64,000 nt of DNA from Sistotremastrum niveocremeum HHB9708 (Eukaryota > Basidiomycota > Agaricomycetes > Sistotremastrales > Sistotremastraceae). Within the stretch, counting starts at the first letter, position 1; each line of letters starts with the position of its first letter. The stretch lies in assembly GCA_001630475.1 (NCBI GenBank), contig KV419412.1, positions 414,692 to 478,691 of the forward strand, given 5' to 3'. The notes under the pieces were generated by a model, which made no database searches, had not been told where the DNA came from, and was given only the letters and a program-made list of their open reading frames with translations. Of the stretch, positions 19,170 through 56,028 are shown piece after piece. Made by a program: the position numbers and the translations under genes.

Positions 19170-19190
19170 TACAAGTGACTGATTTTACTA
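19170..19190 (+). promoter_or_regulatory. Decayed copy of the array promoter block (gene A)
   Basis: The other array genes have ATTGGCTGATTTTCC at this relative place. Here the aligned bases read AGTGACTGATTTTAC, so the inverted CCAAT core is lost. The following block (TGTCAAGG, then CCTCATTGTA) still aligns with the upstream regions of C, F and G. Confidence 0.5.
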
Positions 19191-19400
19191 CTCATTACTA
19201 GAGCTCAGATGATCACGATCAAAGGGCCATGTCAAGGCTGCCTGACGGAAGCCCTCATTGTACACACGACTCCGTGCTCCTGCACCCTTTTCTCTTCCTT
19301 CGTCTTTCTCATCAACTCCCCCATCAACTCCCCCCTCTGACTGGTCTCTTTCCAACATTAGTGGCTGGCCTCCACGCTATCCACGCTCGCCACGCTCGCC

Positions 19401-22400
19401 ATGGCGGATACCGAACACCCGAAGACTCCTCTCACAGTTCCTGCAGCTGCAAATGGGGATTTAGGCTCCAAATTCGACACAATGATTGGATTGATGCAGC
19501 AGCAAAACCAAATAATGGCTGATCAAGGGAAAACTTTGAAAGACCATAGCACGATGTTGGAGACATTAAAGACTGATGCGCTCAAAAGTACGTTCTTTCA
19601 TTTTGGTTAGAGGATGGTGATGAACGAGCGCTAGACGATCAAGCAATGGAAGGACGTAGTCTCAAAGACCGACTCACGTGGAACGTTCTGCGGAAAGAAG
19701 CAAATGTTGAGACTAAAGAAAAGGTCGACGAATGGAAGGACTTGATGCAGTTATCTCTGGTCTTCGTAAGCGCTCTTATTGACCCACGACAAATCCAAGT
19801 GCTGACATCAAGGCTCCCAGAACGCCATTTTCTTGACAGTCGTCACGGCGTTCATTGCACCTGTAATACAGGCATTCACGTCCGTGACAACGAGTTCCAG
19901 CTCTCAATCATTGTCGAAACCGACACTGCCGCCTCTCTCCACGCAATTTGTGGCGTTGTTCTTTTACCTCGCACTCATCGTCAGCGTAAGTTCATTCCAA
20001 ATCGAAGGTGGTTATAAGTAACCTGATGAACTATTCGACCAGATTCTCAACGCTGTTCTTTGCGTGCTTGGCATGCAATGGGCAAGCAGATTGCTCGCCA
20101 CCCCTGTCGGCAAGGACGACTTAGAGCGAACGCTTGCCCACGAGAAACGCCGAGCACTCGCTGAGGGCAAGCTCCTCCCTCTTATGGGCGTCCTCTTCTG
20201 GACGCTGCTTCTCTCCATTGGATTCTTTATCGTGGGCCTCCTCATCCAGCTATGGGCACTTTCGTTCTCGTGCAACAAGCCATCCTTTGTCCTGATTTTT
20301 GGCGCTGCATACGCTACGGCACTATCCATGATTATTCTTGGCGTTATTCTCGCAACGACGTACCATGCTGCGATCACTAAGAACTCGCCGTTTGAGAGTC
20401 CGTTGAGCGCTGCGCTGCGACCAGCGCTTCAATGGTTCAAACTCTCTGATCAGAATAAATGCGTGGAACGCGAATTTGCAGAGGGCTTGAAGGAGAAGAC
20501 CGTCGACCAACTCGTGAGAGCGGAGGAGCAGGACACCGATACGGTGAAAGCGCTCAAGACCTACGCGCGTCTAGTCCTCAACACGACTGATGCCGAGGTT
20601 CTAGAGAGAGCCGTACCCTCGTTCGAGATCGGAGAATGGTACAGCGTTCGAGACACGTTGTGGGACGTCTTCTTGGCTGTGCGGGAGCGATTCCTGGCAA
20701 CAGACACCTCGTTTCGGGTGAAGGACACAGTGCATAAGCAGTTGGTCTACTTTGTAGAATGGGGCGGATGGAGAAGGGATCGGGGGTTGTGGAAAGAGAA
20801 TCTTGAAGGAAATGCAATCACGGAATGGTGTAGAGATCAATGCAAGGATCGGGTCCAAAAATTCCCCGAATATCGCCGACAATTCTTCCCTGCCTGGGTT
20901 TTCTTCACTTCACTCGACCCAGACAACAGCGACCTCCGGGGCCTTATGTCTGATTCCATCTTCGGATCTGAATCATACGAGCACTGTGTCGGCCGAGTTC
21001 TCTCTTCCTTTGACCGAACGAGGGAATTAGGAGACCCGATAGATGCAAGGGAAGATGTCTTCTGGTGGGCTGTCTGGACGTGCGGATATCTCCTCAAAGA
21101 CGGTAGATCAGATGTCATCACCCTCATTGTTGATATGGGTGGTCGATCTTCTATTCTCCGATCTCTGGTCCCGAGTCAGCACGAGCTCATGGACTGGGAT
21201 TTCATCAACGAGGTTGTTGCATTTATCATACGAGGAAACGAAGTTGCTGTATTGGAAGAGATGGCGGAATTCTTCTCTACCCTCCTTGACATCAAACCCG
21301 TGGGGGGTGAACTGCGTGTGATTGAATTCCTGGGATCTCTTCAATCTTGCCCCTACCCTCAGTCTTTTCCTCCACTATCGCTCAACGATTCGGCTCTCAC
21401 TGTCGCATTACAGTGACACACTGATTTATTTCCTCAATCACGGCGGCTTCGAAGGACTCTCCTCCCTTTGGCCGGCTCACGACTTCTTCCAACTCTGCCT
21501 CACGCTATCTTCTGATGACACACCCCAAAGCATGAATAGGCGAGACCGCGCCAAATTCTATCTGGAGCCACATCGAGGTCTCGTTGGTACGTACAGTACT
21601 TTCCCTGAGCGTCTATTTCATTCGTGACGTGTTTTACTAGCTCTCCCGCCACCGTCTCCCGAAGAACTTCGGAATCTCCTCGATGATCTTCAGTCATATC
21701 AACATAACAGGGCCTCAGAAGATCTAGAGAAGAATTTCATTAATGCTGTCATAGAATGTGACTATCTCTCCCGTGAAGGCAGACAAGCTGAGATCAAAGT
21801 CTTTCTGTCGCAATTCGATCGTGTTCCCCTTCTGAGGCTTGTCCTTCAAAATCCACACTTCTCAGGGCAGCGAATCTCGTCTCTCATCCGCGTAATCATA
21901 GAACCAAACGAGCTAGAATGCATAGGCGCTGCTCCGGCTATGCTCGCCAACATTCCGCCGATAGCACGATCTGACGGAGACCTTCCAGTTCTTGCATTCC
22001 TTGCGGCCCTCATTCCATTCCTCCCTCCAGACTACATTGTTCCTCCAGATTTTAATCTCTCTCAGACCATCACACTCTTCATGCAAAATGATCTTAATAA
22101 GCAAACCTGGCGCAAAAATTCAGATACCTTGATGCACTACCTGGATCGGGGAGCTATTGAGACATCATCTGATGTCAACTCTGTCCGACGTTTCCTGAAC
22201 CTCTGTAGGGATCCTTACGATGATGTTTTTGCGTGGTGGAGTCGGGATCACCGAACTGGCGATCATACGCGTGATCGTGCATTGGAACTCTTAGCACAAC
22301 TTGATGCGTCTCGTGAAGGTGCGTGTTATCTTTATTGGGGCCGATTTCAACGTTTCACTCACACGATAATATGACAGGCCTCGCTCAACCGGCTTCTGAA

Positions 22401-22610
22401 GCTGATCTCGTGATGGATACCGCTAATATCCCAGCACCGGTGGAAACCGAAACTGTAGACCACAAAGAATCACCGCCTCATCAAAATTGGCCTGTATTCG
22501 GTCGATGGATAGGGGAGTTGTGGAGAGGGAAGCGAAGAGCACGAGAACCAAGTAATCTTGGGGATGTAGAGATGGCTTTGCGATCACCGGGCACAATTGA
22601 GGATACTTGA
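19401..22610 (+). pseudogene. DUF6535-type membrane protein, array copy A, frameshifted
   Basis: Six exons match the other array members: coiled coil (GDLGSKFDTMIGLMQQQN), DDQAMEGRSL-type exon (here NDQAMEG), first membrane segment (TVVTAFIAPVIQAF), long exon from about 20043, helical C-terminal exon, and tail ending GDVEMALRSPG. Within the long exon, after VIEFLGSL, about 41 bp are missing compared with copy E (the IPSLPSTFTVPQSF stretch). This shifts the frame and gives a stop at 21414-21416. The downstream sequence stays open in the old frame (HGGFEGLSSLWPAHDFFQ), so the damage looks recent. No alternative splice restored the frame. A truncated membrane protein of the N-terminal half could still be made. 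Confidence 0.78.
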
Positions 22611-24500: not shown

Positions 24501-24540
24501 GCAAATATTTTCATTGGCTAATTTTCCTTGTAGCAGACGC
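24501..24540 (+). promoter_or_regulatory. Array promoter block, gene B
   Basis: Contains GCAAATATTTTCATTGGCTA followed by ATTTTCC, with the inverted CCAAT core (ATTGG) about 171 bp before the ATG at 24684. The same block precedes genes C to G. Confidence 0.7.
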
Positions 24541-24683: not shown

Positions 24684-27600
24684 ATGCGAAGTCGAAAGAC
24701 GCCCGCCAGTTCGTCGAGGGAGGCACCTGCGATGGCTGCGAAAGATGACTTAGCACCGAAATTTGATCGAATGATCAGCTTGATGGAGGAGCAGAATAAG
24801 ATGATGGGAGAGCAGGGGAAGACTTTGAAGGAGCATAGTAAGATGCTGGAAGCCCTTGAAAAGGACGCAACCCGAGGTCTGACAGCGTCTTCTTGCATCA
24901 GGAGATATTCACTGACCATAGTATATCATTGTCTAGATGACACGGCGCACGAAGGAAGAGGTCTGAAAGATGAATCTACGTGGGGTGCTTTGGATAAAGA
25001 AGCGCTAGCGAGGCTCAAAATTTTGGTTGATGGATGGAAAGACCTTATGAATGTTTCGTTGATCTTCGTAAGCCGTCGTGTTCACTCGAAGAAATCTGGA
25101 GCTAACACAAACCATATTGATAAGATCGCGCTCTTCTTGACGGTCGTCACAGCCTTCATATCACCTATCATCCAACTATTCTCAACACCTTCATCGACGA
25201 AGGCAAAACCACCGCTCCCTCCGACATCATTACAGCTCGTCGCTTTGTTCTACTATTTGGCGCTCATGTTTAGTGTGAGTTAGTGTTTTCATAATAGGTG
25301 ATCGCAGACTCACTCGTACGATCACAGATCTGCAATTCGGTGATGTGTGTCCTGGGGCTCCAATGGGCAGGAAGGCTGCTCTCTGTGCCTCTGGGAAAAA
25401 CAAATCTAGAACGCGCGCTGAACCGGGAACGTCGTAAGGTCCTGGCCGAACAGCGCCTCCTCCCTCTTATGGGAGTTCTTTTCTGGACCCTTCTTCTCTC
25501 CATCGCGTTCTTTGTGATTGGCTTCCTCATCCAGTTGTGGGCCTTATCCTTCTCATTCGAGGAAAGAGCTTCGATTCTCATAGTCGGCGCTGTTGCCGCT
25601 ACGGCCCTTGCAATCACTATCCTCGGCCTCATTCTCGCGACCACATATCACGCCGCAGTACACAAGAACTCACCGTTCGAGAGCCCTCTGAGCTCTGCTT
25701 CGGTCGCGACTTGGGCTTGGCTGAAACACGTGACGACGAAGCCCAAGAACGTGAGCAAGATAGAGAAGGGAGGAGCACGTCAATGGTCTCAGCAAGGATT
25801 CACGATCAAATGTCTTAAGTCACTCCGACATTGTATCCAAGACTTTTCTCGATGGAGCGTTGGGAAGCTACCTGTGTCGGCAGGATTACCGTCTCTCGAA
25901 GAGGAAAAAGGGCCTCGAGACGAGGCTGAGCCTGCGACGCAAGAGGAGAAGCCAATCGAGGAGCTACTGAAGGAAGACGAAGACGACAACGAAAACGTGC
26001 AAGCACTAAAAGCCTACGCACGTCTAGTCATCAATACGAATGACGCTGAGGTGTTGGAGAGAGCAGTGCCTTCATTTGAGATTGGAGAGTGGTCCAAGAA
26101 CGGAGGAGACTTGCTGCCGGTGTTGTTAGCAGTGCGAGAACGATTTTTGGCGACAGATACCTCATTCCGGGTGAAGGAGACAGTGGACAAGCAGTTGCTC
26201 CGCTGCAGACAGTGGAGTGGATGGAGGATTTATGGGTATTGGAGAGACGACCTCGAAGGAAATATGATCACATGGTGGTGCAGAGATCATTGCGCTGCTT
26301 TGGCTAGAGGAGCCCATGAATCTCGCCGCCAGTTCTTCTCTGCTCTTGTCTTCTTCACTTCATTCGATCCGGGCAACAGCGACCTGCGGGGTGATCCAGG
26401 GATCGACTCGTATGAGGATAGCGTCGCCCGAGTTCTCTCTTCATTCGACCAAGAGGGAACATTAGGATTCCGATTCTTTGTCTTCGTCACGGCTGTTGAG
26501 GAGTGCAGATCTCTCCTTGGAGTTGGCAACTCTGATGTCACTGGCATTCTTTCTCTACGTGGTCGACCTTCTCTTCTCCGTTCTTTGCTGCGGAATCCGT
26601 ACATCGATTGGGATGAGATCAAAGACATTGTTGCATTCATCACACAAGGCAACGAAGTTGCTGTATTGGAAGAATTAGCCGAATTTTTCTCCAACCTTCC
26701 TGACATCAGGCTCGTGTGGCATGATCTCCTAGTGATTGAATTCCTTGCTTCTCTCATCCCGTTGCTACCATCAAACTTCTCCGTCCCTCAATATCTTGAT
26801 CTTAGCCCTACCCTCAGTCTTTTCCTCCGCTATCAGTCAGACATTCCAGATTCACTATCACGTTACATCGACACACTTCTTTACTTCCTCGATCACGGGG
26901 GTTTCGGGCTCCTCTCGTCCCTTCTAGTGGCTCACGAATTCTTTCAGTTCTGCCTCGCATTATCATCAGATGATAATCTCCTGAGCACGAATAATCAAGA
27001 TCGCGCTAAATTCTATTTGGAGCGACATGGGGCTCTCGTTGGTACGTATTTCCCATAAGCTTCTGTTTCACTTTGTGACATCTTTTCATAGCACTTCCTC
27101 CAGCTTCTCCTCGGGACCTTCAGGATCTCGTCGATGCCATTCAGCTGTATCAGGACAACCTGACCTCGGAAGATCTGGAGGGGAGTTTTGTTGACGCTGT
27201 CAAGGAGTGTGACTCTCTTTGTCGAGAAGGCAGACAAGCTGAAATCAAGATCCTCCTTTCGCACCTTGACTTGGCTTCTCTTCCTCTTTTAGTCCTTCGA
27301 TGTCCAGGTTTTTCTGGGCGTCATATTTCCGCGCTCATCAATTTGATCATACAAGAGAACGGGCCAGAGCATGTGCGTACTGCTCCTGACGTCCTTGCCA
27401 ACATTCCACCGATGGCGCGATCTCATGGCGACCTCCCTGTTCTCTCATTCCTTGCGTCTCTCATTCCGTTCCTCCACCCAGAATATATTGTTCCTCCAGA
27501 CTTTGACCTGTCTCAGACGCTCACACGCTTGATGCGCAGCGACCCTCATGAACAAACTTGGCGGAAACACTCTGATACCTTGATGCTCTACCTTCATCGC

Positions 27601-28029
27601 GGTGCTTTTGATACCCTTTCTGACCGAGCCTCGGTCGGAACCTTCCTCGACACTTGTGCAGAGAGCGACACTTGGGCTATGAGACATTGGAGGCAGGATC
27701 AACGAACAAGTGCTCCCACCCGCGAACGAGCCATCCAACTCAAAGAGAAGCTCGAGTCGCTTCATGCAGGTGGGCCACCGTGACTTTCATTGTCTGCCTG
27801 TGTTCCTGACTGACAGCCTGTTTCTCTTCTAGACCCATGTCCCGCCGTTGACGTCCCCCACGCTCTCTCCACCCCTCGAGAAGAGAACAAGCCGCGGCCA
27901 ATGGCTCTTCAAATATGGCATGCAGTCACACGACGGCTGAAAGGCATCTGGAGATCAGGGAGGAAGGGTGGGAGATTGGTCGCAGCTGGGGACGTAGAGA
28001 TGGCTTTGAAAGATCAGACAGAGACATAA
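24684..28029 (+). CDS. DUF6535-type membrane protein, array copy B
   Basis: The coding frame looks intact over six exons. The start at 24684 gives MRSRKTPASSSREAP, then a coiled coil (FDRMISLMEEQNKMMGEQGK), the exon GRGLKDESTWGALDKEALAR, and four membrane segments: ALFLTVVTAFISPIIQLF, LVALFYYLALMFS, LLPLMGVLFWTLLLSIAFF and ATALAITILGLILATTYH. The long exon (from about 25327) continues with ALKAYARLVINTNDAEVLERA and a long helical region. After an intron (GTACG to CATAG) the C-terminal exon carries EGRQAEIKILLSHLD, and the last exon ends GDVEMALKDQTET. The membrane part is of the type shared with C, D and G, but the C-terminal exon is of the type of A, E, F and G. Probably a multi-pass membrane protein of unknown role. 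Confidence 0.85.
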
Positions 28030-28587: not shown

Positions 28588-28625
28588 GCAAATATTCTAA
28601 TTGGCTGATTTTCCTGCTCAGACGC
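28588..28625 (+). promoter_or_regulatory. Array promoter block, gene C
   Basis: Contains AAATATTCTAATTGGCTGAT then TTTCC, with ATTGG about 205 bp before the ATG. It is followed by CAGACGCTGAGGAGGCAGTG, which aligns with genes F and G. Confidence 0.72.
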
Positions 28626-28804
28626 TGAGGAGGCAGTGTCAAGGCACTAACCTGACAGGTTGCCCCATCGTAGCGCGACTCCGTGCTCTCACTTTCACAC
28701 CCATACCCACACCCCTCTCTCCGCTCTTATCATCTTCCATCATCTCCCATCGTCGCCCTATCGTCCCCCGTCGTTTCCGCCAACTCTCACCAACTACGCT
28801 CAAG

Positions 28805-31800
28805 ATGGCGGATCCTGAACCGCCGGTCATCGTGACTGCAAAAGATGGGTCTGCCTCCTCGATAGGAGATCTGGGCACGAAATTCGATGTCATGATTGAC
28901 TTGATGAAGTCGCACATTGCTATCGTCACTGAACAAAGCAAGACGCAGACCGAACAGAGCCAGATCCTGAGGGATCACAGCAAGATGTTGGAGGCACTAG
29001 AGAAGGACGCAACAAGAGGTATCGTATCATTACGTCCGTTTCTTGAGAACAATTCGCTGATAAAATGGTAGACGATAAAGCCTACGAAGGAAGAGGTCTA
29101 AAAGATGAATCAACGTGGGGTGCGTTAGATAAGGAAGCGTTAGCGAAGATCAAAGTGCTTGTAGATGGATGGAAAGACCTCATGAATGTATCCCTTATTT
29201 TCGTAAGTCATCATACTCCGCGATACAAATTTGTAGTTCATGTGTGAATCTCATCCCATTTAGATTGCTCTCTTCCTGACAGTTGTAACCGCTTTTATAG
29301 CTCCTATTATCCAACTATTCTCGACTCCTTCGTCGACAAAGGCAAGACCACCGCTCCCTCCGACCTCATTACAGCTCGTCGCTTTGTTCTATTATTTAGC
29401 GCTTATGTTCAGTGTAAGTTAGATTTCGGAATGCTTGATCAGAGAGTTACTCATATGTTTACAGATTTGCAATTCAGTAATGTGTGTGCTTGGCCTGCAG
29501 TGGGCAGGAAGGTTACTCTCTGTACCTCTCGGGAAGACAAACCTAGAACGCACTCTGAATCGCGAGCGCCGCAGAGTCCTCGCCGAACAACGTCTCCTCC
29601 CTCTGATGGGAGTTTTGTTTTGGACCCTTCTCCTTTCCATCGCCTTCTTCGTCATCGGATTCCTTATCCAATTCTGGGCGTTATCATTTTCTTTTGACGA
29701 ACGCGCGCCTATGCTCATCATCGGCGCTGTTTCTGCTACCGCGCTCGCGATCACTATCCTCGGCGTCATTCTTGCCACCACTTACCATGCCATGGTACAC
29801 AAAAACTCTCCATTTGAGAGCCCCCTGAGCACTGCTTCGGTCGCGACTTTGGCGTGGCTGAAGCGAGTGACAGGGAAGAGCGAGAAGAAGACCACAAAGA
29901 AGAGCGATGAAAGACGACGATGGTATCAGCAAGGATTCATGATCAAACATGCCAACTCGTTCCGACATCGCGTCCAAGGCTTCCCCCGGTGGGTCGCTGC
30001 CAAGCTAAACCTCTCACCAGGATCGCCGTCTCACAAGTCGTCGGGAGAGAAAGAAAGACATCAAGACAATCCTGAGCCTGAGACGGAAGAGGAGAAGCCA
30101 ATCGAGGTCTTGATGAAAGAAACTGCCGACGACAATGAGACCGTGCAAGCACTCAAAGCCTACGCGCGTCTAGTCGTTAACACGAATGACGCCGAGGTAC
30201 TGGAGAGAGCGGTACCCTCATTCGAGTTGGGAGAATGGTGCATCAGCGGAGGAGATCTGCTACCGGTCTTCCTGGCAATGCGAGGACGGTTTCTGGCGAC
30301 AGACACTTCGTTTCGAGTGAAGGAGACAGTGAACAAGCGGACGGTTGATTGTAGAGAGTGGAGCGGATGGACAGACGAGTATGGGAGATGGAGAGAGCAT
30401 TTGGAAGGAACCGAGATCCCTCGCTGGTGCAGAAATGAATGCTTTGATCTGGTCGATCGATCACACGAATCTCATCGACAATTCTTCCCTTCATTGGTTT
30501 TCTTCGCTTCCCTCGATCCGCACAACGCAGATCTGCGAAGACGTCGGCTTGAGTCATACGAGGAAAGTGTCGCACGGGTTCTCTCTTCATTCGACCAAGA
30601 CGAGGAATTGGGATACCGATTCGATGTCTTCCTTTCAGCTGTCATCGAGTGCACATCTCTCCTCAGCGATGGCAGATCGGATGACGTCACTCGCATTCTT
30701 TCTAGCGGTGATCGACCTTCTCTTCTCCGCTCTTTACTCCGGAACCCGTGGTACGTGTGGGATGGCATCAAGGACATTGTCGCGTTGATCACAGGAGGGA
30801 ACGAAGTTGCTGTATTGGAGGAAATGGCCGAATTCTTCTCCAATCTCCCTGACATGGATCTCGTGCATGGAGATCTGCTTGTGATCCACTTCCTCGAATC
30901 CCTCATTCCGTCTCTGCCCCCGACTTTCACTGTCCCCCAGTCCTTCGATCTTATCCCTACTCTCACGCTGTTCCTCCGCGTTCAGTCACGCATCGAGTAT
31001 TCACTGCCGCGTTACACTGACCCACTCCTCTACTTCCTCGACCACGGCGGCCTTAAGCAGCTCTCCTCCCTTCGTCCCGCTCACGACTTCTTCCGACTCT
31101 GCCTCACGCAATCGTCCAATGACCAGCTCGACACTGTTTCGGATCGTGCCCGATTCTATCTTTCCGAACATCATGAGGCATTCACTCGTAAGTTATTGCT
31201 CTTTGCCTTGGATTCATTTCTGACTATTTTCGACAGCTCTCCCGGGTCCGTCCGACCAAGATCTCGAGGATCTCGTTGATGCCCTCGTTTCGTACAAGAA
31301 GAACACGTCATCCCAAGATTTACAAGGGAACTTTATAGATGCAGTTATGGGGTGCGACTGTCTTTTACGTGAACAGAAGAAGGACGAGGTTACAGATATT
31401 CTGCTGCGCGTGGGCCACCTCCCCATCCTCGAGGCTTTCATCCGGAATCCTCGCCTCCGCCTCAAACACATCTCGGCTCTTGTCCTTCTCATTATAGAAG
31501 GAGGAGAATATACCTATCTCCGTTGTCTGAGTCCTGCCATCACCGATCCGTCACTGTTAGACCTCCCTGGCGCCTATAACCCTATTCTCGAGTTTCTCGC
31601 ACTCCTTCTCCGACATCTTCCCTCCGCCTTCACCGTCCCTCGAGAATTTGATCTGTCTCAAACATTCAGCCTATTCATGCGCAACAGGCCCGATAAGGAC
31701 ACCTGGCGCAAATTCTCCGATGCCTTGATCCAATATCTCGATCATGGCGCCCTAGGGGCACTTTCCGATCAGATCTATGTTCGACGTTTCCTCAAACTCT

Positions 31801-32184
31801 GCGTCAACCCTTATGGCCCTGAATTCTTGTTTTGGGAGCCGAATGAACGAACTAGTGAATCGACTCGTCAACGAGCCGCTGAATTGATGAAGAAACTTGA
31901 TGCCGGTGAGCACATTTTGTCGTAAACTACTATTTCTTGCTTACGAATCTAATTCATGGCGTGAAGATCAACAGTCCTCGGGTGGTGATCGTACCGCTGG
32001 TGATGTGAATCCGCCAGAGCCTATCAACACCGATATAGCAGAGCCTCGAGGACCGTTCGCGATTCGAGTGTGGCACGCACTCGCCTCACGGCTCACGGAA
32101 GCCTGGCCTTGGAAGAGAGGTGGAAAGACAGGCGGCCAAGTCGGCGATGTGGAGATGGCTTTGCGATCGCCTGGCGGTGCGTAG
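28805..32184 (+). CDS. DUF6535-type membrane protein, array copy C
   Basis: Six exons, frame intact. Exon 1 (28805 to about 29020) encodes MADPEPPVIVTAKDG and a coiled coil with repeated EQSKTQTEQSQ. Exon 2 is DDKAYEGRGLKDESTW, and exon 3 holds the first membrane segments (TVVTAFIAPIIQLF and LFYYLALMFS). Exon 4, from about 29465, has the remaining membrane helices (LLPLMGVLFWTLLLSIAFF, then ALAITILGVILATTYH) and the helical body. A GTAAG-GACAG intron near 31190 leads to LPGPSDQDLEDLVDAL, and the tail ends GDVEMALRSPGGA. Its C-terminal exon (REQKKDEVTDILLRVGHLP) is shared in type only with copy D. Exon 1 is identical in sequence to that of copy G over 237 bp including upstream bases. Confidence 0.86.
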
Positions 32185-37300: not shown

Positions 37301-37752
37301 TCGGGGTGCTTTCGAAGCAGTCTCTGAGAAAAAGCCTTTGCAATCTTTCCTGAAGCTCTGCACCCGCCCTTCCCGTACTCCTGGCAGGTGGCAGAGTTGG
37401 TACTCGAGTCAACAGACTAGCGAAGCAACTTATGAACGGGCAGCAGAGCTCTTGGCAAAGCTTGATGGACTTGAAGCAGGTTCGTAACTTCTTCTTCAAT
37501 CCAGATCTTGCGCTGACACATATCTCAGGCCGATCGTCCGAAGCTGTTCCCGCCGCCGTCGCTGCCATTCCTCCGCAGCCTCGCAGTACAGAGGTAGAGG
37601 ATCAGTCACGGCCTTTTACTCTTCGGATATGGCACTTAATTACACAACGGCTGAGAGACACTTGGATATGGAAATGGGAAGCACCCGAGGAAGAGACACC
37701 GGTTGTAGCTGAGGACCTGGAGATGGGACAGAGGCATCAAGACGAGACGTAA
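34370..37752 (+). CDS. DUF6535-type membrane protein, array copy D, with a GC-AG intron
   Basis: Six exons, frame intact if one intron uses a GC donor. The start gives MRSRKTSTSSSKGSP, close to copy B, then a coiled coil (LMEEQNKIMTQQSQTQTEQS). Membrane segments include TVVTAFISPIIQLF, LLPLMGVLFWTLLFSIAFF and ALAITILGVILATTYH. The helical body contains ALKAYARLVINTNDAEILE. The intron after AAFI has the donor GCAAGC and acceptor GGATAG, where copy C has GTAAGT. It rejoins at LLGPSDQDLEDLIDAIVAYK. The C-terminal exon (REQKGPEINDVLSRVGHLP) is of the C type, and the tail is divergent (VAEDLEMGQRHQDET). A multi-pass membrane protein of unknown role. Confidence 0.83.
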
Positions 37753-41500: not shown

Positions 41501-41756
41501 TATTGCTGGGCTGTGTTTCTTACTGCCAAATCTCGCACGTGTAGTTCCGACCCCTGTCATTGCAACTCCCCCCGTCAATGCTCCAGATCCTCCCAGCCAC
41601 GCAGAAGAAATTGAGCCACAGTCATTAGTAATTCGTCAACCATGGGACATGTTCAGACAACGGCTGGCAGATTTCTGGAGATGGAGATGGAGAGGTCGGA
41701 CAGCGGAAGTGGCTCGGGATGTAGAGATGGCTGTGAGAAATCCCAACGAGACATGA
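38512..41756 (+). CDS. DUF6535-type membrane protein, array copy E
   Basis: Six exons, frame intact. Exon 1 starts MADPDSHASSQAIPT and has a coiled coil with a duplicated heptad region (MVQLMRGQSEVVHLMKRQNE). Exon 2 is DDQAYERKDFRDRLTWN, exon 3 the first membrane segments (TVVTAFITPVIQTF and LFFYLALIVS). The long exon from about 39191 carries LIPLMGVLFWTLLLSIGFF and ALSVAILGVIIATTYH, then the helical body. The intron after AFVG (GTACG to ACTAG) leads to LPPPSPEELQHLIDVLQ, and the tail ends ARDVEMAVRNPNET. The membrane type (LGMQWAGRLLA, KDDFERTMAHE) matches copies A and F. It has the longest N-terminal coil of the set. Confidence 0.86.
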
Positions 41757-44000: not shown

Positions 44001-45398
44001 AAAGGCAGTGTCGAGGCACGTCTGACAGGTGGCCTCATTGTATGCACCACTCTGTTCTCCCACACCCACATCTCCCTACTCTGTCCTCCCATCATCTCCC
44101 GTCTCCCGTCGTCTCCCCACCTCCCATCGACTTCGAGTGATACCTAATCGCCTTCGAGTGACTGTGCTCCTCGATGAACATGGCGGATCCTGAGCCACCG
44201 GCTCCTATCCCTGCTCCTGCAGCTGGGAACGGCGATTTGGGCGCCAAGTTCGATAAGATGATTGAGCTGATGCAGCATCAGAATGACTTGATAGCTGAAC
44301 AGGGGAAGACTTTGAAAAGTCATGGTACGATGTTAGAGACTTTGAAGACCGATGCGCTCAAAAGTACGTCCTTTTGGTTTCTTGACGAGAATAACGATGT
44401 TAAACGAGCGCTAGACGATCAGGCCATGGAAGGACGAAGTCTGAGAGATCGGTTGACCTGGAATGTCCTACGGAAAGAAGCGACAGCGAAGACGAAGGAA
44501 AAGGTCGACGAATGGAAGGATTTGATGCAGTTATCTCTGGTCTTCGTAAGCATTGTCGTTGACCCACGACAAACTCAAGTTCTGAGATCAAGGCTCTTAG
44601 AACACCATTTTCTTGACAGTCGTCACGGCGTTCATTGCACCCGTGATACAGGCATTCACCTCCACGCCGTCTGACTCTAGCTCTGGCTCGGCCTCAAAAC
44701 CGTCGTTGCCACCGCTGTCAACGCAATTTGTCGCTTTGTTCTTTTACCTCGCCCTCATCGTTAGCGTGAGTTCATTCCAACTCGAAGAGATTAATAGGGA
44801 TCTGACAACTTTTAACTAGATACTCAACGCTGTTCTTTGTGTTCTAGGCATGCAATGGGCAAGCAGATTACTTGCAATGCCTATGGGCAAAGATGACCTC
44901 GAACGCACGCTCGCTCACGAGAAGCGCAGAGCCCTCGCTGAGGGAAAGCTACTCTCTCTCATGGGTGTCCTCTTCTGGACCCTCCTCCTCTCTATCGGAT
45001 TCTTCATCGTCGGACTCCTCATCCAAGTCTGGGCTCTCTCCTTCTCTTGCAGCAAACCATCCTTCGTCCTCATCGTCGCTGCGGCAATCTCTACCGGATT
45101 ATCCGTGACTATCCTCGGCGTCATACTATCTACGACGTATCATGCCGCCATCACCGAAAACTCGCCCTTTGAAAGCCCTCTCAGCGCGGCAATGCGACCC
45201 GCACTTCAGTGGTTCAGATTGCATACCCAGCGCAAGGATGCGCCCCAGACAGATGAGAAAGACGAAGATGCACGGGAGACACAAAAGAAGAGCGTCGATG
45301 AGTTGATCAGGACGGAGGAGAAGGACACCGACACCGTAAAAGCGCTCAAGACGTATGCACGTCTAGTCCTCAACACGACTGACGCCGAGGTACTGGAG

Positions 45399-45698
45399 TA
45401 AGGTTTAACACGAGTCCAGGCAAAAAACAGGTACCCGCAGGTATACCTGGCAAGGTACCTGCTTACTAAGCAAGGGGCAAGTACCAAGTATCAACTTTTT
45501 GGAAAAAACACTGACAAAGCAGGTACTTGGACCAGGTACCTGCTGTTTTTAGTAGGGAAAACAGGCAGGTACCCAGGTATGAGTACCTGATTTTGGGGGT
45601 TTTTTGGAGGCAAGTATGAGCTCAGGCCCTGAAAAAAGCAGGGAGGTACCTGCCACAGGTACCCAGGTATGGCAAGTATGGACTCGTGTTAAACCTTA
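45399..45698 (+). mobile_element. MITE X, copy 1 (hAT-like)
   Basis: A 300-bp element with perfect 19-bp terminal inverted repeats (TAAGGTTTAACACGAGTCC). It is flanked by the 8-bp target duplication TACTGGAG (45391-45398 and 45699-45706). Its body is full of CAGGTACC-type short palindromes. The TAAGG end fits the hAT consensus TARNG. It has no coding capacity for a transposase. It is inverted and identical relative to copy 2 at 51324-51623. Confidence 0.93.
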
Positions 45699-46929
45699 TA
45701 CTGGAGAGAGCGGTCCCTTCATTCGAGATCGGGGAATGGTACAGGGCAGGAGACACGTTGTGGGATGTTTTTTTGGCAGTGCGGGAGAGATTCTTGGCGA
45801 CGGATACATCTTTTCGGGTTAAGGAGACAGTGCACAAGCAATTGGTCTATTTTTCAGAGTGGAGCGGATGGAGAGGAGATCTTGAAGTAAATGCGATGAC
45901 TCGATGGTGCAGAGATCATTGCAGAGTTCTGGTTCGACGATCGCACGAATCTCACCGAGAGTTCTTTCCTGCGTGGGTTTTCTTCACTTCCCTTGACCCA
46001 GGCAACGAAGATCTGCGGGGATATCGGTCTGATTCGCACGAGCAAAATGTCGCACGAGTTCTCTCTTCATTCGATCGAGACCGGAAATTGGGAGACCGAG
46101 AAGATGTTTTCGCTTCAGCTGTCGTCAAGTGCAAATCTCTCCTGCGCGATGACAGATCAGAGACCGTCACCCGCATTCTTTCTCCCGATATTCGATCCTC
46201 TGTTCTCCGCTCTTTGCTCCAGAATCCAATCTTCTCGTGGGGTGGCATCAAAGATATTGTTGCATTCATCACAAGAGGGAATGAAGTAGCCGTATTGGAA
46301 GAATTGGTAGAGTTCTTCTCCAACCTCCCTGACATCAAGCCTGTGGGACGCTATATTGAACTGCTTGTGATCGACTTCCTATCTTTTCTTATTCCATCTC
46401 TCCCCTCAATGTTCACTCTCCCCCGACCCTTTGATCTTGCCCCTACCCTCGCTCTACTCCTCCGCTATCCCTCAGAGATCGAGAATTCACTGTGGCCTTA
46501 CAGTGACGCACTCATTTACTTCCTCGATCACGGCGGGTTTGAACAGCTCTCCTCCCTTCGTCCAGCTTATGACTTCTTCCAACTCTGCCTCACGCTTCCT
46601 TCTGATGACGGTCCCACAAGCACGAGTAGCCAAGGCCGTGCCAGATTCTATCTAGAGCCACATTGGGGTCTCATTGGTACGTCCGTTGCCTGAGCGTCTA
46701 TTTCCCTTCTGACACCTTTTACTAGCTCTCCCGCCTCCGTCTCATGAAGAGCTTCAGAATCTTGTCAATGCCCTTCAGTCATACCAGAACGACATGGCCT
46801 CGGAAGATCTGGAGAAGAATTTCGTTGACGCTGTCATAGAATGTGACTATCTTGCTCGGGAAGGGAGCCAGCTCGAAATGAAAGCCCTTCTCCATCAAGT
46901 CGATCGTGTCTCTCTGCTTGGTCTGCTCT

Positions 46930-47387
46930 AGTGTTTGCAAGTCAGGTCACGTAACCGCCAAATAACTGTGACTTAGCCGTAACTTAACCGTTTGTGACCT
47001 AACCATGGTTAAGGTCATGGTTCAGAGCTGGTGGTCAAGTCACAGTCATGGACCTCCCCGGAATCCTTGACCGCTTGCCTTGACCAACATGGGTAGATCC
47101 TTGTCTACAGCCTTCCACAGGCCTTCTGGTGTGTTCTGCTTGTCATATACATCATTTATGAGGTCCAGTGACCTAGATTAAGTAGTAAAAAGTGGAGATT
47201 TATGACTTTTTTGAGGTCATAACCGCTTTAACCGGTCAAAGTCAGGTCACGGTCACCCAATTTTGGCTTAACCGTGACCGTTGGCGGTTATAGGTTACAG
47301 CAAAACCCCCCAAAATAACCGCAGTTAGGTTACGGTTAGGGCCTCTGAGGTGCCCATAACCTAACTTAACCCGACTTTCAAACACTA
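46930..47387 (+). mobile_element. MITE Y, copy 1 (hAT-like)
   Basis: A 458-bp element starting TAGTGTTTGCAAGTC and ending GACTTTCAAACACTA, with the target duplication GTCTGCTC at 46922-46929 and 47388-47395. The body is rich in GGTTA/TAACC runs (CCGTAACTTAACCG and similar). It interrupts the C-terminal exon of gene F. A close copy lies at 57095-57553. No transposase is encoded. Confidence 0.92.
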
Positions 47388-48682
47388 GTCTGCTCATCCG
47401 GAATCCACACTTCTCTGGTCGGCAAATCTCGGCTCTCATGCCCTTAATAGTGGAAGGAAACGAGCTAGAGCATATACATACTGCTCCTGCTTTGCTCGCC
47501 AACATCCCGCCGGTGGCCCCATCTGACGGAGACCTGCCAATTCTCGCATTCCTGGCATCACTCATGACCTTCCGCCCCTCAGACTACTATATCGTTCCTC
47601 CTCATCTTGATCTGTCTCAGACCCTCACAATCTTTATGGCCAATGACCCTGATCAGCGAAGCTGGCGCCGATGTTCTGATACTTTGATGCACTACCTCCA
47701 TCGTGGCGCTTTTGATGCCCTTTCTGATCAAGATTCGGTCCGACCTTTCCTCAACATCTGTACCTCTTCTCCTTGGTGGATGTACCGTTGGGATCAGGAT
47801 CAACAAACGAGTACACTTACCCGCGAACGAGCCATCGAGCTCAAAAAGAAACTTCCAGCGCTCAATGCAGGTGCGTCTTCGTGAATCTTGTTGCCGGCTG
47901 TGTTCCTTACTGAGAATTTTTATTTATTTTTAGCCGCAGATCCTGTGACCGAAAGTCATTCTGTTGATGATTCTCTCGTGCCTCCCATCCCTGAAGCACA
48001 GGCTCCTACACAGACGTTAGGTCTTCGAACATGGGATGCGTTCACACGACGGTTGGAAGATATCCGGAGATGGAAGTGGAGAGGCCGAACAGTGGCCACA
48101 GCTAGCGATGTAGAGATGGCTTTGAGAGATCGACGCAACACGTAAAGATGTAGTGTTCTCGAGTCTCTTCCTTTTCGACCAACCGACTTTTGTTTTGGAT
48201 TTGATCGATGGAGTGTCGGCTTTCTATTACATCCATGGCGTATCTAGTAGCCAGATGGAAATGCGGAAAGGATATAGTATATAGAGCGAATCAGCACCTT
48301 GACAGTTGACACTAGACATTTTCAACCTGCAAAACGCTCAGGCTGCAGTTTCCTACAATAATACAATAAGCGCCGGTCGCTTCCTTCCTTCTTGAAGGCT
48401 TCGACATCGACATCCTATGCTGGTGTCAGACCCTCCGTCTCGTTCTTCATGTGCAAGTACATCAAGTGTCCTCTTCGTATTTCAGGAAGAGTTGACTCTC
48501 CACCAGCTCTGGATTTATGCGACCCTGGATCGTTGATGCCACCGAATCGCACTGCGGTTCGTCTGCGGATGGAAACTCCAAACTCCAGCGATACCGCCGC
48601 AATTCAGCCATGCCTAGTCTCAAAATTATCACCAGAAGTTTTCCATGCGATCCGGGTACAGGTGCATATTCAAGGATGAACC

Positions 48683-50091: not shown

Positions 50092-50094
<3 letters not shown>

Positions 50095-50125
<31 letters not shown>
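50095..50125. repeat. (CA)n microsatellite
   Basis: About 31 bp of uninterrupted CA dinucleotides in the F-G spacer. Confidence 0.97.
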
Positions 50126-50127
<2 letters not shown>

Positions 50128-50445: not shown

Positions 50446-51098
50446 GAGGCAGTGTCAAGGCACATCTGTTCGATGGGGGGCTTCATCGTAGCACGACCTC
50501 GTGCTCTCACTCTCACACCCACTCCCTCAACCCATACTCCTCTCCTCCATTCCCCCATCATCTCCCTATCGTCCCCCGTCGTTTCCGCCAACTCTCACCA
50601 ACTACGCTCAAGATGGCGGATCCTGAACCGCCGGTCATCGTGACTGCAAAAGATGGGTCTGCCTCCTCGATAGGAGATCTGGGCACGAAATTCGATGTCA
50701 TGATTGACTTGATGAAGTCGCACATTGCTATCGTCACTGAACAAAGCAAGACGCAGACCGAACAGAGCCAGATCCTGAGGGATCACAGCAAGATGTTGGA
50801 AGCTCTCGAGAAGGACGCTACGAGAGGTATCGCACAATTATCAATTTCAGTCAAGAGACAGTTGACTGATGAGGTTGTAGACGATAAAGCATATGAAGAA
50901 AGAGGCCTGAAAGACAAATCTACCTGGGGTGCTCTGGATAAGGAAGCGTTGGCGAAGATGAAAGTTATAGTTGATGGATGGAAAGACCTCATGAATGTAT
51001 CGCTTATTTTTGTAAGTCGTCATGTTCCGCGATACCAATGTCAACCTGATATGTGTATTTCATCACAATCAGATCGCTCTCTTCCTGACCGTCGTGAG

Positions 51099-51314
51099 TC
51101 CTAGGGTTTCGAGGTCCAGTCGCGGTCCAAAATTTGACTTTTTTTCTAGCAGTCGGATTGCTCTGAAACCTTCAGTCATGGGGGGTCTTTTACCTATCCA
51201 ATGGTAGATCCACTCACGGGTTGCCACTTTTTGCCCTGGGTTGCCTGGAAAGTGCAAAAAAGGGGCGGCAACTGGGGTAAAACGGTCCAGTCATGACTGG
51301 ACTTCGAAACCCTT
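51099..51314 (+). mobile_element. MITE V (hAT-like), older partner of nested pair
   Basis: The left end reads TCCTAGGGTTTCGAGGTCCAG and the right end, reversed, AAGGGTTTCGAAGTCCAGTC, so the terminal repeats are imperfect. The flanks GTCGTGA(G) at 51091-51098 and GTCGTGAC at 51315-51322 form a 7-8 bp target duplication. The exact ends may shift by a few bases (TAGGG begins at 51102). It interrupts the first membrane-segment exon of gene G. No coding capacity. Confidence 0.75.
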
Positions 51315-51323
51315 GTCGTGACT

Positions 51324-51623
51324 TAAGGTTTAACACGAGTCCATACTTGCCATACCTGGGTACCTGTGGCAGGTACCTCCCTGCTTTTTTCAGGGCCTGA
51401 GCTCATACTTGCCTCCAAAAAACCCCCAAAATCAGGTACTCATACCTGGGTACCTGCCTGTTTTCCCTACTAAAAACAGCAGGTACCTGGTCCAAGTACC
51501 TGCTTTGTCAGTGTTTTTTCCAAAAAGTTGATACTTGGTACTTGCCCCTTGCTTAGTAAGCAGGTACCTTGCCAGGTATACCTGCGGGTACCTGTTTTTT
51601 GCCTGGACTCGTGTTAAACCTTA
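51324..51623 (-). mobile_element. MITE X, copy 2 (hAT-like)
   Basis: A 300-bp element, the reverse complement of the copy at 45399-45698 with no difference that I can find. Target duplication TCGTGACT at 51316-51323 and 51624-51631. It landed in the target duplication left by element V, one base past the right end of that element, so it came second. Confidence 0.93.
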
Positions 51624-53802
51624 TCGTGACTGCCTTCATTTCTCCTCTTATCCAACTTTTCTCGACACCTTCGTCAACATCAAAGCCGGCCCCGCCCCCT
51701 ACATCATTGCAGCTGGTTGCTCTATTTTATTATCTAGCGCTCATGTTCAGTGTAAGCAAAACCTCGACATGGCTGACAGAAAATTGATTGAGACTTTATA
51801 GATCTGCAATTCGGTGATGTGCGTCCTCGGGTTACAATGGGCAGGTCGCCTGCTCTCGGTGCCCCCAGGCAAAACCAATCTCGAGCGCGCGTTAAATCGC
51901 GAACGGCGAAAGGTCCTCGCCGAGCAGCGCCTGCTCCCTCTTATGGGAGTTTTATTTTGGACCCTTCTCCTTTCCATCGCCTTCTTCGTCATCGGCTTCC
52001 TGATCCAATTCTGGGCTCTGTCATTTTCCTTTGACGAAAGGGCGCCAATTCTTGTCATTGGTGCAGTTGCCGCCACCGCTCTGGCTATCACGATCCTCGG
52101 AGTTATCCTCGCGACCACCTACCATGCGACTGTGTACAAGAATTCACCATTTGAAAGCCCGCTCAGCACAGCAGCACGAGCATCGTGGGCTTGGGTGAAG
52201 CAAGTGACGAAGAAGCATGACAAGGAGCGCAGGAAAATGAAAGACAAGCAGAAGCGATGGCATCCACATCAATTCACAATCGCACATCTCAAATCTCTCC
52301 TCCACTGCATCCGCCGCTTTGCCCAATGGGTACTCCGAAAGCGGTCGCTCGCGACAGAATTATCATCCCACGAGTCGTCAGAAAAGGAACGAGTTCCGGA
52401 GGAGACCAAAAAGGAGTTGGAGGAAGAAAAGCCAATCGAGTTGATGATGAAGGAGAGTGAAGATGATAGGGAAAATGTGCAAGCACTCAAGGCCTATGCG
52501 CGTCTAATCATCAACACGAATGACGCTGAAGTCTTGGAAAGAGCGGTCCCTTCATTCGAGATTGGAGAGTGGTACAACGCTCGAGACACATTGTGGGAAG
52601 TCTTTTTGGCAGTGCGAGAGAGATTTTTGGCGACGGACACATCGTTTCGGGTGAAGGAGACAGTGAACAAGCAGTTGGTCTATTTTATGCAGTGGAGCGG
52701 ATGGAGAGACAGATGGATGTGGAGAGATGATCTTGAAGGAAATGCGATCACTCGCTGGTGCAGAGATCAATGCAAACATCTATCATTGGGATCCCATCGA
52801 CAATTCTTCTCTGCTTATGTTTTCTTCGCTTCCCTTGAACCACACAACGAAGATCTGCGGGGAGTTCCATGGCGTGACTCGTACGAGGAAGATGTCGCTC
52901 GGGTTCTCGCTTCATTCGAGCGACATTGGAAATTGGGAGACCGAGAATATCTCTTCTATTCAGCTGTCATCGAGTGCAGATCTCTCCTCTACCATGGCAG
53001 ATTGGATGACGTCACGCGCATTCTTTCCCGCGGTGATCGGACTTCTATTCTGCGCTCTTTGCTCCGGAATCCGCACAGGGGGTGGATTGAGATCGAAGGG
53101 ATTGTTGCATTGATCACAAGAGGAAATGAAGTTGCCGTATTGGGAGATTTGGCCAAGTTCTTCTCCAATCTCCCTGACATCTACCCTGTGGCTAGTGAAC
53201 TGCTTGTGCTCAATTTTCTCGGCTCTCTCATTCCGTCTCTACCCTGGACGTTCACTCTCCCCCGGTCGTTTGATCTCACCCCTACCCTCATTCTTCTCCT
53301 CCGCTATCAGTCACGCATCGGGTATTCACTGTTGCGTTACACTAACACACTCATTTACTTCCTCGATCACGGCGGCTTCGAAGTCCTCTCCTCTCTTCGT
53401 CCCGCTTACGACTTCTTCCAGTCCCTCCTCACTCTGTCCTCCGATGACGACTCCCAGCGCAGGGCTGAACGAAACCGCGCCAGAATCTATCTGGGACATG
53501 AGGCTTTCGTTGGTACGTTCCTTGCCCAAGCGTCTATTTCGATTGTGACACCCTTCACTAGCTCTTTCGCCGCCGTCTGCTCAAGACCTTCAGAATCTCC
53601 TCAAGGACCTGCAGTCATACCAGAATAATATTGACGCAGAAGATCGGGAAGAATGTTTCATTGATGCTGTCAAGCAATGTGACTCGCTTTCGCGGGAAGG
53701 CAGACAAGATGAGATTAAGCTCATTCTTTCGCAAGTCGATCGTGTTCCTCTTCTTGGTCTAATTCTTCGAAATCCTCACTTTTCCGGTCGGCACATCTCA
53801 GC

Positions 53803-54548
53803 TAGTGTTGCAAAGATATGATATTTCATATCGCAAAATATCGCATATCATATCATATCATATCACTTTGCGATATGATATCTGATATGATATTCTGATC
53901 TTGGAGGTGATATTGATATGAAAATATCCCCCTTCCCAGAATTTGCGATATCGCAAAATATCGATCAAAACTGATAAAAACTGATGTGATTTTGGGGTCA
54001 TCTGGGGTCAATTTGGGGTGCAACTTGGGGTATATGGGGCTCAATATCTCAGTATATATCACCTTCCAAGTGATATATAGCCTCCTATATGCTATAATAC
54101 TGTGATATCCCTCATATATAGGCAAGTTCCCACCCTCTGGGGACCAGATGTCACCCATGTCACCCTCCGTCACAGGTCCCACAGGTGCCAAACCTTCCCA
54201 TGAGGTCATCACTCACTCACAGATATCACTGGCAACTGTATGTAGAGGCTGATATAGCACCACTGTACCATGATATCATGATATACTGGAGGATATATGT
54301 AGATTACAGAAGGATTTGAGAAAAAAATTGCAATTTAAACTGATAAAAACTGATATCAAACTGATTTATATCGCACAAGTGATAAAATCGATTTAAATCA
54401 ATACGATATTTTGATTTTGAAAACAAAATATCGATATCGCGATATTGATATGATATTTCCAAGATTCTGGGATTTGTGATATTGATATTGATATTGATAT
54501 TCCAAAATTTGGGTAAAATATCATATCATATCATATTTTGCAACACTA
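53803..54548 (+). mobile_element. MITE Z, copy 1 (hAT-like, AT-rich)
   Basis: A 746-bp element beginning TAGTGTTGCAAAGATATG and ending ATTTTGCAACACTA, with target duplication ATCTCAGC at 53795-53802 and 54549-54556. Most of it is built of GATAT/ATATC words, which make long stems. A minus-strand open frame inside (53853-54212) is shared with the other copy but looks like a side effect of sequence similarity. Confidence 0.92.
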
Positions 54549-55283
54549 ATCTCAGCCCTCATTGCCTTAGTCGTAGAAGGAAACGAGCTGGATCATAGCC
54601 GTTTGGCTCCTGCGTTAATCGCCACCATCCCCTCGATCGCTCGATCCGACATAGACCTCCCAATTATCGCATTCCTTGCCTCCCTCATTCCGTCCCTCCC
54701 CTTGGAAGATATTGTTCCTCCGGAATTTGATCTTTCTCAGACCCTCAAACTCTTCATGGCCAATGGCCCCACTCCGCGAACTTGGCGCAAACATTCAGAT
54801 ACCTTGATGCACTACCTTCATCGCGGCGCCTTTGAGGCCCTTTCTAATCAAAAATTGGTCCGACGCTTCCTCAACCTCTGCAGAAAGCCTTCCGATTGGT
54901 GGATGAACGATTGGAGTCAGGATCAACGAACAAGTACACTTACCCGTGAACGAGCTATTGAACGCAAGAAGAAACTGCACGTGCTTAATGCAGGTGTGTC
55001 CTCGTGAATTTCGTTGCTCGCTGTGTTCCTTACTGCCAAATTTAGCACGTCGGCAAGCTTGTCATCCCGTCATCACGACTCCTGCGGTTATAATTAATGA
55101 GCCTTCAGATCCTTCCACCACTGGAGAAGAGGTTCAGCCAAGGTTGCCGACTCCCCGAACATGGGATGCATTCGCAATTTCGCACGACGGCTGGGAGACA
55201 TCTGGGGAAGGATGTGGAGAGTTCGGACAGCAGCTGCAGCTGGGGATGTGGAGATGGCTCTGAGGGATCAGAGCGAGACCTAG

Positions 55284-56028
55284 ATATCTAGTGTTTATAA
55301 TCTTTTACTTTTTCGCTCGCCGACTTTTGTTTGGGATTCAAAGACATTGAAAGAACGAGTAGCGTCTCTCTTATGCTTTAGTACATTATGCTCAGTAGAC
55401 AGATGGAAATCCGCAAAGGATGTGTCATAAAGCGACTCATGATTTGAACTTCGACCGAAATCACTCCCTAGTGCTGGATAAAATAAGCGCCGGCGAACAC
55501 TCTTCGGACGACGATCATCGGTGTCCACCTCTCTCGATATCCAGCTCATCGTTCCCAACCTCAGAGAGAGTATCTGGCCTCAAGTCCGTGTTTGACTTGG
55601 ATCCCGTATCCCGAATTTTATTTGAAGGATTATCGCCGTGGAGTCCTAGACTCCTAGTACAGTAGTGACCACTGACCATCTGCCCCTTCATCAGGAAAGT
55701 GCTAGATCGGAATATGCCGGTATAGACGGTACATACCCGTGAGACCAGGATTCCTAGGGTCCCGATCACAGACTTGCACAGACTTGCACAGACTAGAGTA
55801 GACTTGAGACACTTTGCATAGTTTGAGATAGGATGGCATGTTTTGGAAGGATTTTCACTCAGACCAGAGAGGACATCACTCAAAAATTCGATATTAAATA
55901 AATAAATTCGTGTTTTAGCAAAAGAAATACAAGGCAATCAATATGTACATAAGAGAGATGGCGAGACGGGAAGATAGAAGGGTATACAGAAACTCTAGAT
56001 ATGGCAAGAGACGACAATAGATAAATGA
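55284..56028. other. Intergenic, right border of the array
   Basis: The spacer motif (AATAAGCGCCGGCGAACACT) occurs once more near 55486, after the last array gene, showing that the repeat unit ends to the right of it. No gene is supported. Confidence 0.45.

What the first reader, a model, noticed from the sequence alone, without database searches (positions are those of the whole stretch)
19170..55290. Seven-gene tandem array of DUF6535-type membrane proteins
Seven paralogs in the same orientation share six exons, a coiled-coil start, four membrane helices and a DVEMAL-type tail. Four are intact and three are damaged in different ways. Such gain-and-loss arrays are typical of genes under changing selection, for instance in recognition of other individuals or organisms. 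That role is inference only; the family function is unknown.
Basis: partly seen in the sequence, partly recalled or inferred. Interest (0 to 1): 0.75.

Follow-up and report, generated by a model that had tools for sequence, protein, structure and literature searches.

The report
Diversifying membrane-protein gene array in fungus
Seven neighbouring fungal genes encode membrane-anchored proteins of unknown function whose helical part is reshuffled between gene copies and changed by selection, as expected of a recognition protein, while three of the seven copies have been broken.

Summary
In detail: seven same-strand, six-exon DUF6535 genes, four intact, three broken. It is one of at least three arrays of this subfamily; the genome has about 128 DUF6535 places, a lower bound.

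New here. (1) The part after the membrane domain is all-helical and holds two tandem ~195-aa modules. (2) Intact copies are not young duplicates: best regional nucleotide identity about 0.86, and copies of one array are no more alike than copies of different arrays. (3) Gene conversion is active: copy 1 broke at the edge of a ~950-bp tract matching a copy in the next array. (4) Copies 6 and 7 carry hAT-type MITEs with perfect 8-bp target duplications. (5) The membrane domain is under strong purifying selection; residues 436-575 show diversifying selection, exceeding 40 of 40 recombination-aware null simulations, with five sites on one helix face. Sister arrays alone are not significant.

Best reading: membrane-tethered intracellular recognition proteins, working like, but not related to, fungal HNWD/NLR proteins. 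Ligand, partner and function are untested.

The parts
19401..22610 (+). copy 1 (broken): frame lost in exon 4 at 21340 where 41 bases are missing; read on, it stops at residue 619
21340..22292 (+). conversion tract in copy 1 matching copy E6 of the inverted array at C19:546978 downwards: 97-100% per 150 bp inside (first full block 21393), 58-78% before, 63-73% after
24684..28029 (+). copy 2 (intact, 1020 aa); exons 24684-24876, 24937-25067, 25125-25274, 25328-27041, 27092-27769, 27833-28029
28805..32184 (+). copy 3 (intact, 1034 aa); exons 28805-29018, 29072-29202, 29264-29413, 29465-31187, 31237-31905, 31967-32184
34370..37752 (+). copy 4 (intact if intron 36747-36795 is GC-AG, 1037 aa); exons 34370-34583, 34635-34765, 34821-34970, 35021-36746, 36796-37479, 37544-37752
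38512..41756 (+). copy 5 (intact, 992 aa; second membrane-domain type); exons 38512-38728, 38778-38908, 38965-39138, 39189-40755, 40805-41482, 41545-41756
44180..48145 (+). copy 6 (broken by two insertions; coding pieces between them open)
45399..45698 (.). 300-bp MITE M1 in exon 4 of copy 6; 8-bp target duplication TACTGGAG; 22 full-length copies at 96-100% in the genome
46929..47387 (.). 459-bp MITE M2 in exon 5 of copy 6; 8-bp target duplication GTCTGCTC; 28 full-length copies at 93-100% counting itself
50613..55283 (+). copy 7 (broken by three insertions; also 8 bases more than copy 6 in exon 6 near 55175, which shifts the tail frame)
51100..51318 (.). element with inverted ends (51103-51121 / 51295-51313) in exon 3 of copy 7, flanked by GTCGTGA; limits approximate, not searched genome-wide
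51324..51623 (.). second M1, 100% identical to the one in copy 6 but inverted; 8-bp target duplication TCGTGACT
53803..54548 (.). 746-bp MITE M3 in exon 5 of copy 7; 8-bp target duplication ATCTCAGC; 11 full-length copies at 89-100% counting itself
28756..28992 (+). 237 bp identical to 50564-50800 (5' leader and exon 1 of copies 3 and 7)
25328..27041 (+). exon 4 of copy 2: membrane helices 2b-4, variable linker, region A and first helical module (aa 525-721)
27092..27769 (+). exon 5 of copy 2: second helical module (aa 743-945)
26159..26578 (+). codons of aa 436-575 of copy 2, the stretch under diversifying selection (18 sites over 0.95)
28591..28611 (+). example of the shared upstream motif AATATTCNNATTGGCTGATTT, 214 bp before ATG; others at 24504, 38297, 43964, 50406 (and 48687 in a spacer)

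Best explanation
The genes encode membrane-tethered intracellular recognition proteins. Shown by sequence: a conserved DUF6535 four-helix membrane domain, an amphipathic (probably coiled-coil) start, and a long all-helical part that includes two duplicated modules. Inferred from charges: start and helical part are cytosolic. Shown statistically: the membrane domain is held constant, while amino-acid changes in residues 436-575 are favoured and the DNA of that region is exchanged between copies and between arrays. Inferred: the helical solenoid is the ligand-binding surface; diversity is made by ectopic gene conversion on an old set of copies, and copies are lost by failed conversion or MITE insertion. 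Inferred and least certain: binding clusters the proteins through the coiled coil and signals through the membrane bundle, in non-self recognition (a pathogen, virus or another mycelium's factor after fusion).
For: Likelihood-ratio statistic 30.0 in residues 436-575, 0 of 40 null simulations as large in either design (one tree, or three recombining blocks; largest 14.6); 524-735: 14.3, 0 of 40 twice; 436-735: 21.0, 0 of 40; membrane domain 0.0. Dropping any one of 15 sequences leaves 15.2-30.4, dropping a whole array 10.5-16.1. Sites 541, 545, 549, 552, 556 fall on one face of a predicted helix (with 539 included, clustering p 0.024; helix). In 16 sister exon-4 copies 3 of the 4 sites over 0.9 are among the same 18 (p 0.007). 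Omega about 0.05 in the membrane domain against 0.34-0.42 in the helical part. Recombination: PHI 0 of 500 permutations in 7 of 8 tests, 8 of 500 in the other; all four combinations of two membrane-domain types and two module-2 types occur. Third-position identity 0.43-0.51 in start and membrane domain, 0.58-0.69 in aa 440-739. The HNWD non-self recognition genes of Podospora are described with the same pair of forces, concerted evolution plus positive selection on interaction-surface positions (PMC2873952, Background section read).
Against: No function, ligand, expression or population data. Codon tests are own code on a coarse grid, and post-hoc region choice. No pair of copies has dN above dS over any large region (0 of 105 pairs in 8 of 9 regions, 3 of 105 in the tail); 3 of 105 pairs have pN above pS in 436-575. 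Sister arrays are not significant alone: 5, 4 and 5 of 40 simulations reach the observed value. Module 2, the duplicated twin, shows no signal as a whole (0.8) though one of its 60-codon windows does (876-935: 11.6). No domain of known immune receptors was found.
Confidence: 0.48

Rival explanations
1. Neutral birth-and-death. The membrane domain does a conserved job, the helical part is only weakly constrained, and conversion and MITE insertions are passive consequences of repeated sequence.
For: Omega stays below 1 over every large region and almost every pair. Exchange tends to raise false positives in codon tests. Sister arrays give no significant test. Three of 7 window copies are broken without visible replacement.
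Against: Null simulations with recombination do not reach the signal (0 of 40 in five designs covering 436-735). Fifteen of 21 copies stay open over about 1000 codons. The same sites recur in sister copies.
Confidence: 0.27
2. Cytosolic adaptor, scaffold or channel-regulator family that diversified to hold many endogenous partners (paralogue specialisation), with no non-self recognition.
For: Conserved membrane domain, ARM/HEAT-like helical part (weak), old copies with divergent modules, a short conserved tail motif.
Against: Partners that are endogenous and fixed would not predict frequent exchange between copies or recent loss of copies; neither point is decisive.
Confidence: 0.15
3. Selfish killer genes of the wtf or Spok type (multi-copy, exchanged, often broken, in wtf membrane-spanning). 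Families named from memory.
For: Membrane protein family with paralogue exchange and broken copies.
Against: Very large old family, at least 128 places, with saturated synonymous sites and omega 0.05 in the membrane domain; no second short product or alternative start was looked for.
Confidence: 0.06

Closest known systems
Pfam PF20153 / InterPro IPR045338 (DUF6535)
   Same: Full-length match to the model, 3.1e-25 and 3.8e-29.
   Different: The model covers the stretch before the membrane through helix 3 (aa 80-230 of copy 2); the fourth helix, the linker and the duplicated helical modules lie outside it. In the paper library only PMC12387923 holds the name, as one table row of a down-regulated Flammulina transcript (passage seen; searches).
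HNWD genes of Podospora anserina (het-d, het-e, het-r)
   Same: Works alike on paper: multi-copy, exchange between copies, positive selection on a recognition surface (PMC2873952, abstract and Background section).
   Different: No NACHT, HET or WD40 domain in copies 2 and 5 at E up to 1; membrane anchored; diversity lies between full paralogues and not in an internal near-identical repeat run.
Fungal NLR repertoire of Agaricomycetes
   Same: Large families with N-terminal signalling part and C-terminal repeats (PMC9815663, passages only; PMC4986451, search listing only).
   Different: No nucleotide-binding domain here; the term transmembrane does not occur in the main text of PMC9815663.
ARM/HEAT helical-repeat proteins (API5, importin alpha, APC)
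   Same: Weak fold resemblance of the two models: API5 E 0.021, prob 0.99; APC-ARM prob 0.97, TM-score 0.56 but E 0.40.
   Different: No match at E 0.001 or better; best hits by E are designed repeat proteins; no sequence match of note in the PDB.

Membership tests
PF20153 DUF6535 | profile match above the curated cut-off of 23.9 bits | tested here: met
   89.5 and 102.2 bits for copies 2 and 5; exon pieces of copies 1-5 and 7 over the cut-off, copy 6
PF20153 DUF6535 | known function of the family | not testable with these tools
   Pfam calls it a family of unknown function
HNWD / fungal NLR | NACHT or NB-ARC nucleotide-binding domain | tested here: not met
   absent at E up to 1 in copies 2 and 5
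HNWD / fungal NLR | HET effector domain and WD40 repeats | tested here: not met
   absent at E up to 1 in copies 2 and 5
HNWD-like mode of evolution | exchange between copies together with diversifying selection on a surface | tested here: met
   surface position rests on a predicted helix only
ARM/HEAT repeat proteins | significant fold or sequence match | tested here: inconclusive
   no Foldseek hit at E 0.001 or better; models of partial chains, mean pLDDT 65.2 and 84.9
hAT-type MITEs (insertions) | terminal inverted repeats, 8-bp target duplications, multi-copy, no coding capacity | tested here: met
   four of four elements M1, M2, M1, M3: perfect 8-bp duplications, multi-copy; superfamily assignment by these features from memory, no transposase linked
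wtf/Spok-type killers | biased transmission, poison and antidote products | not testable with these tools
   no crosses or transcripts

The most novel reading that the evidence does not exclude
A mushroom-type fungus carries an immune or allorecognition receptor system that is not built on NLRs: more than a hundred DUF6535 proteins, each a coiled coil, a four-helix membrane bundle and a cytosolic helical solenoid with a duplicated module, whose recognition face is renewed by ectopic gene conversion between arrays; ligand binding clusters the proteins and opens or disturbs the membrane.
Probability: 0.2. Interest if true: 0.9.

Novelty: new variant of a known kind. Interest (0 to 1): 0.6.

Why it matters
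DUF6535 is one of the most numerous gene families in this genome and I found nothing in print about what it does. Pointing to a short list of selected positions in a defined module turns an anonymous family into a testable recognition hypothesis. If true, fungi of this group would have a membrane-anchored recognition system outside the NLR framework. If false, the array is still a clear worked example of how gene conversion and small transposons break copies in an old array.

Tried and rejected
Simple tandem-duplication burst: rejected, copies of one array are no more alike than copies of different arrays. Copy 1 as a plain 41-bp deletion: rejected, identity to copy E6 jumps at that point and falls again about 950 bp later. 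C91 as a second allele of C19: rejected, 9 differences in 9,671 bases all lie in the last 151 aligned bases (556140-556290) of C19; the rest is identical, so the contigs overlap. HEPN_AbiU2 (12.5 bits against 26.8) and ABC_membrane (15.3 against 28): below cut-off. A first codon model without synonymous rate variation gave larger values (123 and 104); not used for the claim. PDB sequence search: nothing below E 0.3. The species was not identified: no fungal collection is held for comparison. Two more distant copies on C19 (248 kb, 352 kb) showed no match to the last exon in the span searched; the third (356 kb) gave an unreliable model.
Full report
What is there. The window is C19:414692-478691 of a 34.7-Mb, 111-contig genome. 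It looks like an agaricomycete: a Plavaka transposase, short introns, and DUF6535 in none of 14 control genomes; the group is inference. Seven DUF6535 genes lie on the + strand from 19401 to 55283, all with a start and a stop codon in place. Four are intact with 992-1037 residues and six exons; copy 4 needs one GC-AG intron. Copies 1, 6 and 7 are broken.

Wider setting. A search with exon 4 of copy 2 shows two further groups of the same subfamily: an inverted array at C19:521-553 kb that runs off the contig end and continues on C91, and one on C75:16-47 kb. Over the aligned spans 6 of 7 copies (E1-E7), 5 of 6 (F1-F6) and 0 of 1 (G1 on C91) are open, so with the window 15 of 21; the two C91 copies that repeat E6 and E7 in the contig overlap are left out. 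Starts and stops were not checked outside the window. The DUF6535 profile alone gives 150 listed matches that merge into 128 places on 35 contigs, one of them counted twice because of the C19/C91 overlap; only 150 of 312 candidates were scored, so this is a lower bound. With the exon-4 hits the union is 161 merged places.

Protein anatomy. DUF6535 spans aa 80-230 of copy 2. Four hydrophobic segments are found in 4 of 4 intact window copies; the loop between helices 2 and 3 carries 8 Lys/Arg against 3-5 Asp/Glu, which puts it, the start and the long helical part on the cytosolic side by the positive-inside rule (the rule is recalled, topology not shown). Exon-4 and exon-5 models are almost wholly helical (mean pLDDT 65.2 and 84.9). 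The two exons hold a duplicated module: exon-4 residues 367-563 align with exon-5 residues 13-215 over 196 columns at 29% identity, E 2.3e-29, that is aa 525-721 and 743-945 of copy 2. Fold searches give only weak ARM/HEAT-like resemblance. The membrane helices could not be modelled whole because they are split by introns.

How copies broke. Copy 1: against copy E6 of the inverted array, identity per 150 bp is 58-78% up to 21242, 82% in the block that holds the junction, 97-100% from 21393 to 22292, then 63-73%. The missing 41 bases lie exactly at the switch. The simplest reading is a conversion tract with a faulty left edge; direction is inferred from E6 being open. Copies 6 and 7: four insertions with perfect 8-bp target duplications and inverted ends, and one further element with inverted ends whose limits are approximate. 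The 300-bp element M1 sits in both copies, identical; 22 full-length copies at 96-100% exist in the genome. M2 has 28 and M3 11 full-length copies of high identity. The coding pieces tested around the insertions are still open, so the loss looks recent.

Exchange between copies. Exact shared tracts include 237 bp over leader and exon 1 of copies 3 and 7, and tracts of 81-221 bp between copy 1 and E6, 122 bp between copy 3 and F3, 98 bp between copy 4 and E2, 96 bp between copy 3 and E5. The PHI test rejects no recombination with 0 of 500 permutations in 7 of 8 tests and 8 of 500 in the eighth. Membrane-domain type and module-2 type occur in all four combinations, 7, 5, 2 and 1 copies. The highest mean nucleotide identity in any region between two intact copies is 0.863, and same-array and different-array means are equal within 0.013: the intact copies are old and exchange as one pool.

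Selection. Median dN/dS is 0.05 in the membrane domain and 0.34-0.42 in the helical regions. Third-position identity is 0.43-0.51 in start and membrane domain and module 2 region 740-979, but 0.58-0.69 in aa 440-739, so this stretch is homogenised at silent sites while its protein varies. A site model with synonymous rate variation gives 30.0 for aa 436-575, against at most 14.6 in 40 simulations with three recombining blocks and at most 12.4 in 40 with one tree; 14.3 for 524-735 (maxima 11.5 and 10.3) and 21.0 for 436-735 (maximum 19.3). The membrane domain gives 0.0 and module 2 gives 0.8. Eighteen sites exceed 0.95 in 436-575; simulations average 0.8-0.9 with maxima of 8 and 14. In 17 sixty-codon windows with their own trees, 5 exceed 9: 436-495, 476-535, 516-575, 636-695 and, in module 2, 876-935. 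Removing single sequences or arrays lowers but does not remove the signal. At the 18 sites, chosen after the fact, pooled pN is 0.609 and pS 0.490. Sites 541, 545, 549, 552 and 556 share one face of the helix at 538-557; 539 does not (p 0.024 with all six).

Independent copies. Exon 4 of 16 relatives on C39 and C21 is open in 16 of 16. Tested alone they do not reach significance: 4.7, 7.3 and 2.6, with 5, 4 and 5 of 40 simulations as large. Yet 3 of the 4 sites above 0.9 in all 16 (462, 541, 545, 570) are among the 18 (p 0.007; in the second run with another scale set 2 of 3, p 0.043). The C39 group also has lower silent divergence in the helical part (0.39-0.45) than in the membrane part (0.60).

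Regulation. AATATTCNNATTGGCTGATTT with up to two mismatches occurs 23 times in the genome, 19 of them in these arrays (two of those are the C91 repeat of C19 sites); the reversed control gives 0. In copies 2, 3, 5, 6 and 7 it lies about 180-216 bp before the ATG. Copies 1 and 4 have no site within three mismatches.

Reading. A constant membrane part, a helical part whose one region is both exchanged and selected, many old paralogues and recent losses fit a recognition protein best. The published HNWD genes combine concerted evolution and positive selection on a protein-interaction surface (PMC2873952, Background), so these genes work like them in that respect; they fail the defining domain tests of that family. 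Signalling mode, ligand and biological context are inference. I give about one half to recognition in the broad sense and one fifth to the boldest form.

Noticed in passing
window 61605-62666 (+): Plavaka transposase match (8.7e-23) close to the array.
   Followed up: no
window 57095-57553 and 63009-63758: Further copies of the MITEs M2 (97.6%) and M3 (93.5%, inverted) outside the genes.
   Followed up: partly
window 24018, 28143, 33716, 37966, 43476, 49810, 55483: Second spacer motif, close to ATAAGCGCCGGCGAGCTCT, one per spacer about 550-800 bp before the next ATG; 19 places with up to two mismatches in the genome, 13 in these arrays, control 0. Meaning unknown; four outside places share one variant.
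   Followed up: partly
L023, about 4450-5011 (C19:409142-409703): DUF6535 match with several stops just upstream of the window, probably a relic copy.
   Followed up: no
window near 55175, exon 6 of copy 7: Eight bases more than copy 6 with a partly repeated TTCGCA, which might be a hAT excision footprint.
   Followed up: no
C19:546620-556290 and C91:23712-33382: Contig ends overlap by 9,671 bases with 9 differences, all at the repeat-bearing C19 end: the array was cut by the assembly and is longer than either contig shows.
   Followed up: yes
C75:44162-44678, C91:4602-5119, C91:23491-24007, C19:555995-556290: Another 517-bp repeat with ends like TAGGGTTTTAAAGTCC at 97-100% identity inside or beside the arrays.
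   Followed up: no
window 50095-50126: Dinucleotide CA repeat in the spacer before copy 7.
   Followed up: no
window 1927-12908 (-): Chain of minus-strand open frames without a Pfam match above cut-off in the 8 pieces tested; one has a weak Zn(2)-Cys(6) match, 15.6 bits against 21.
   Followed up: no
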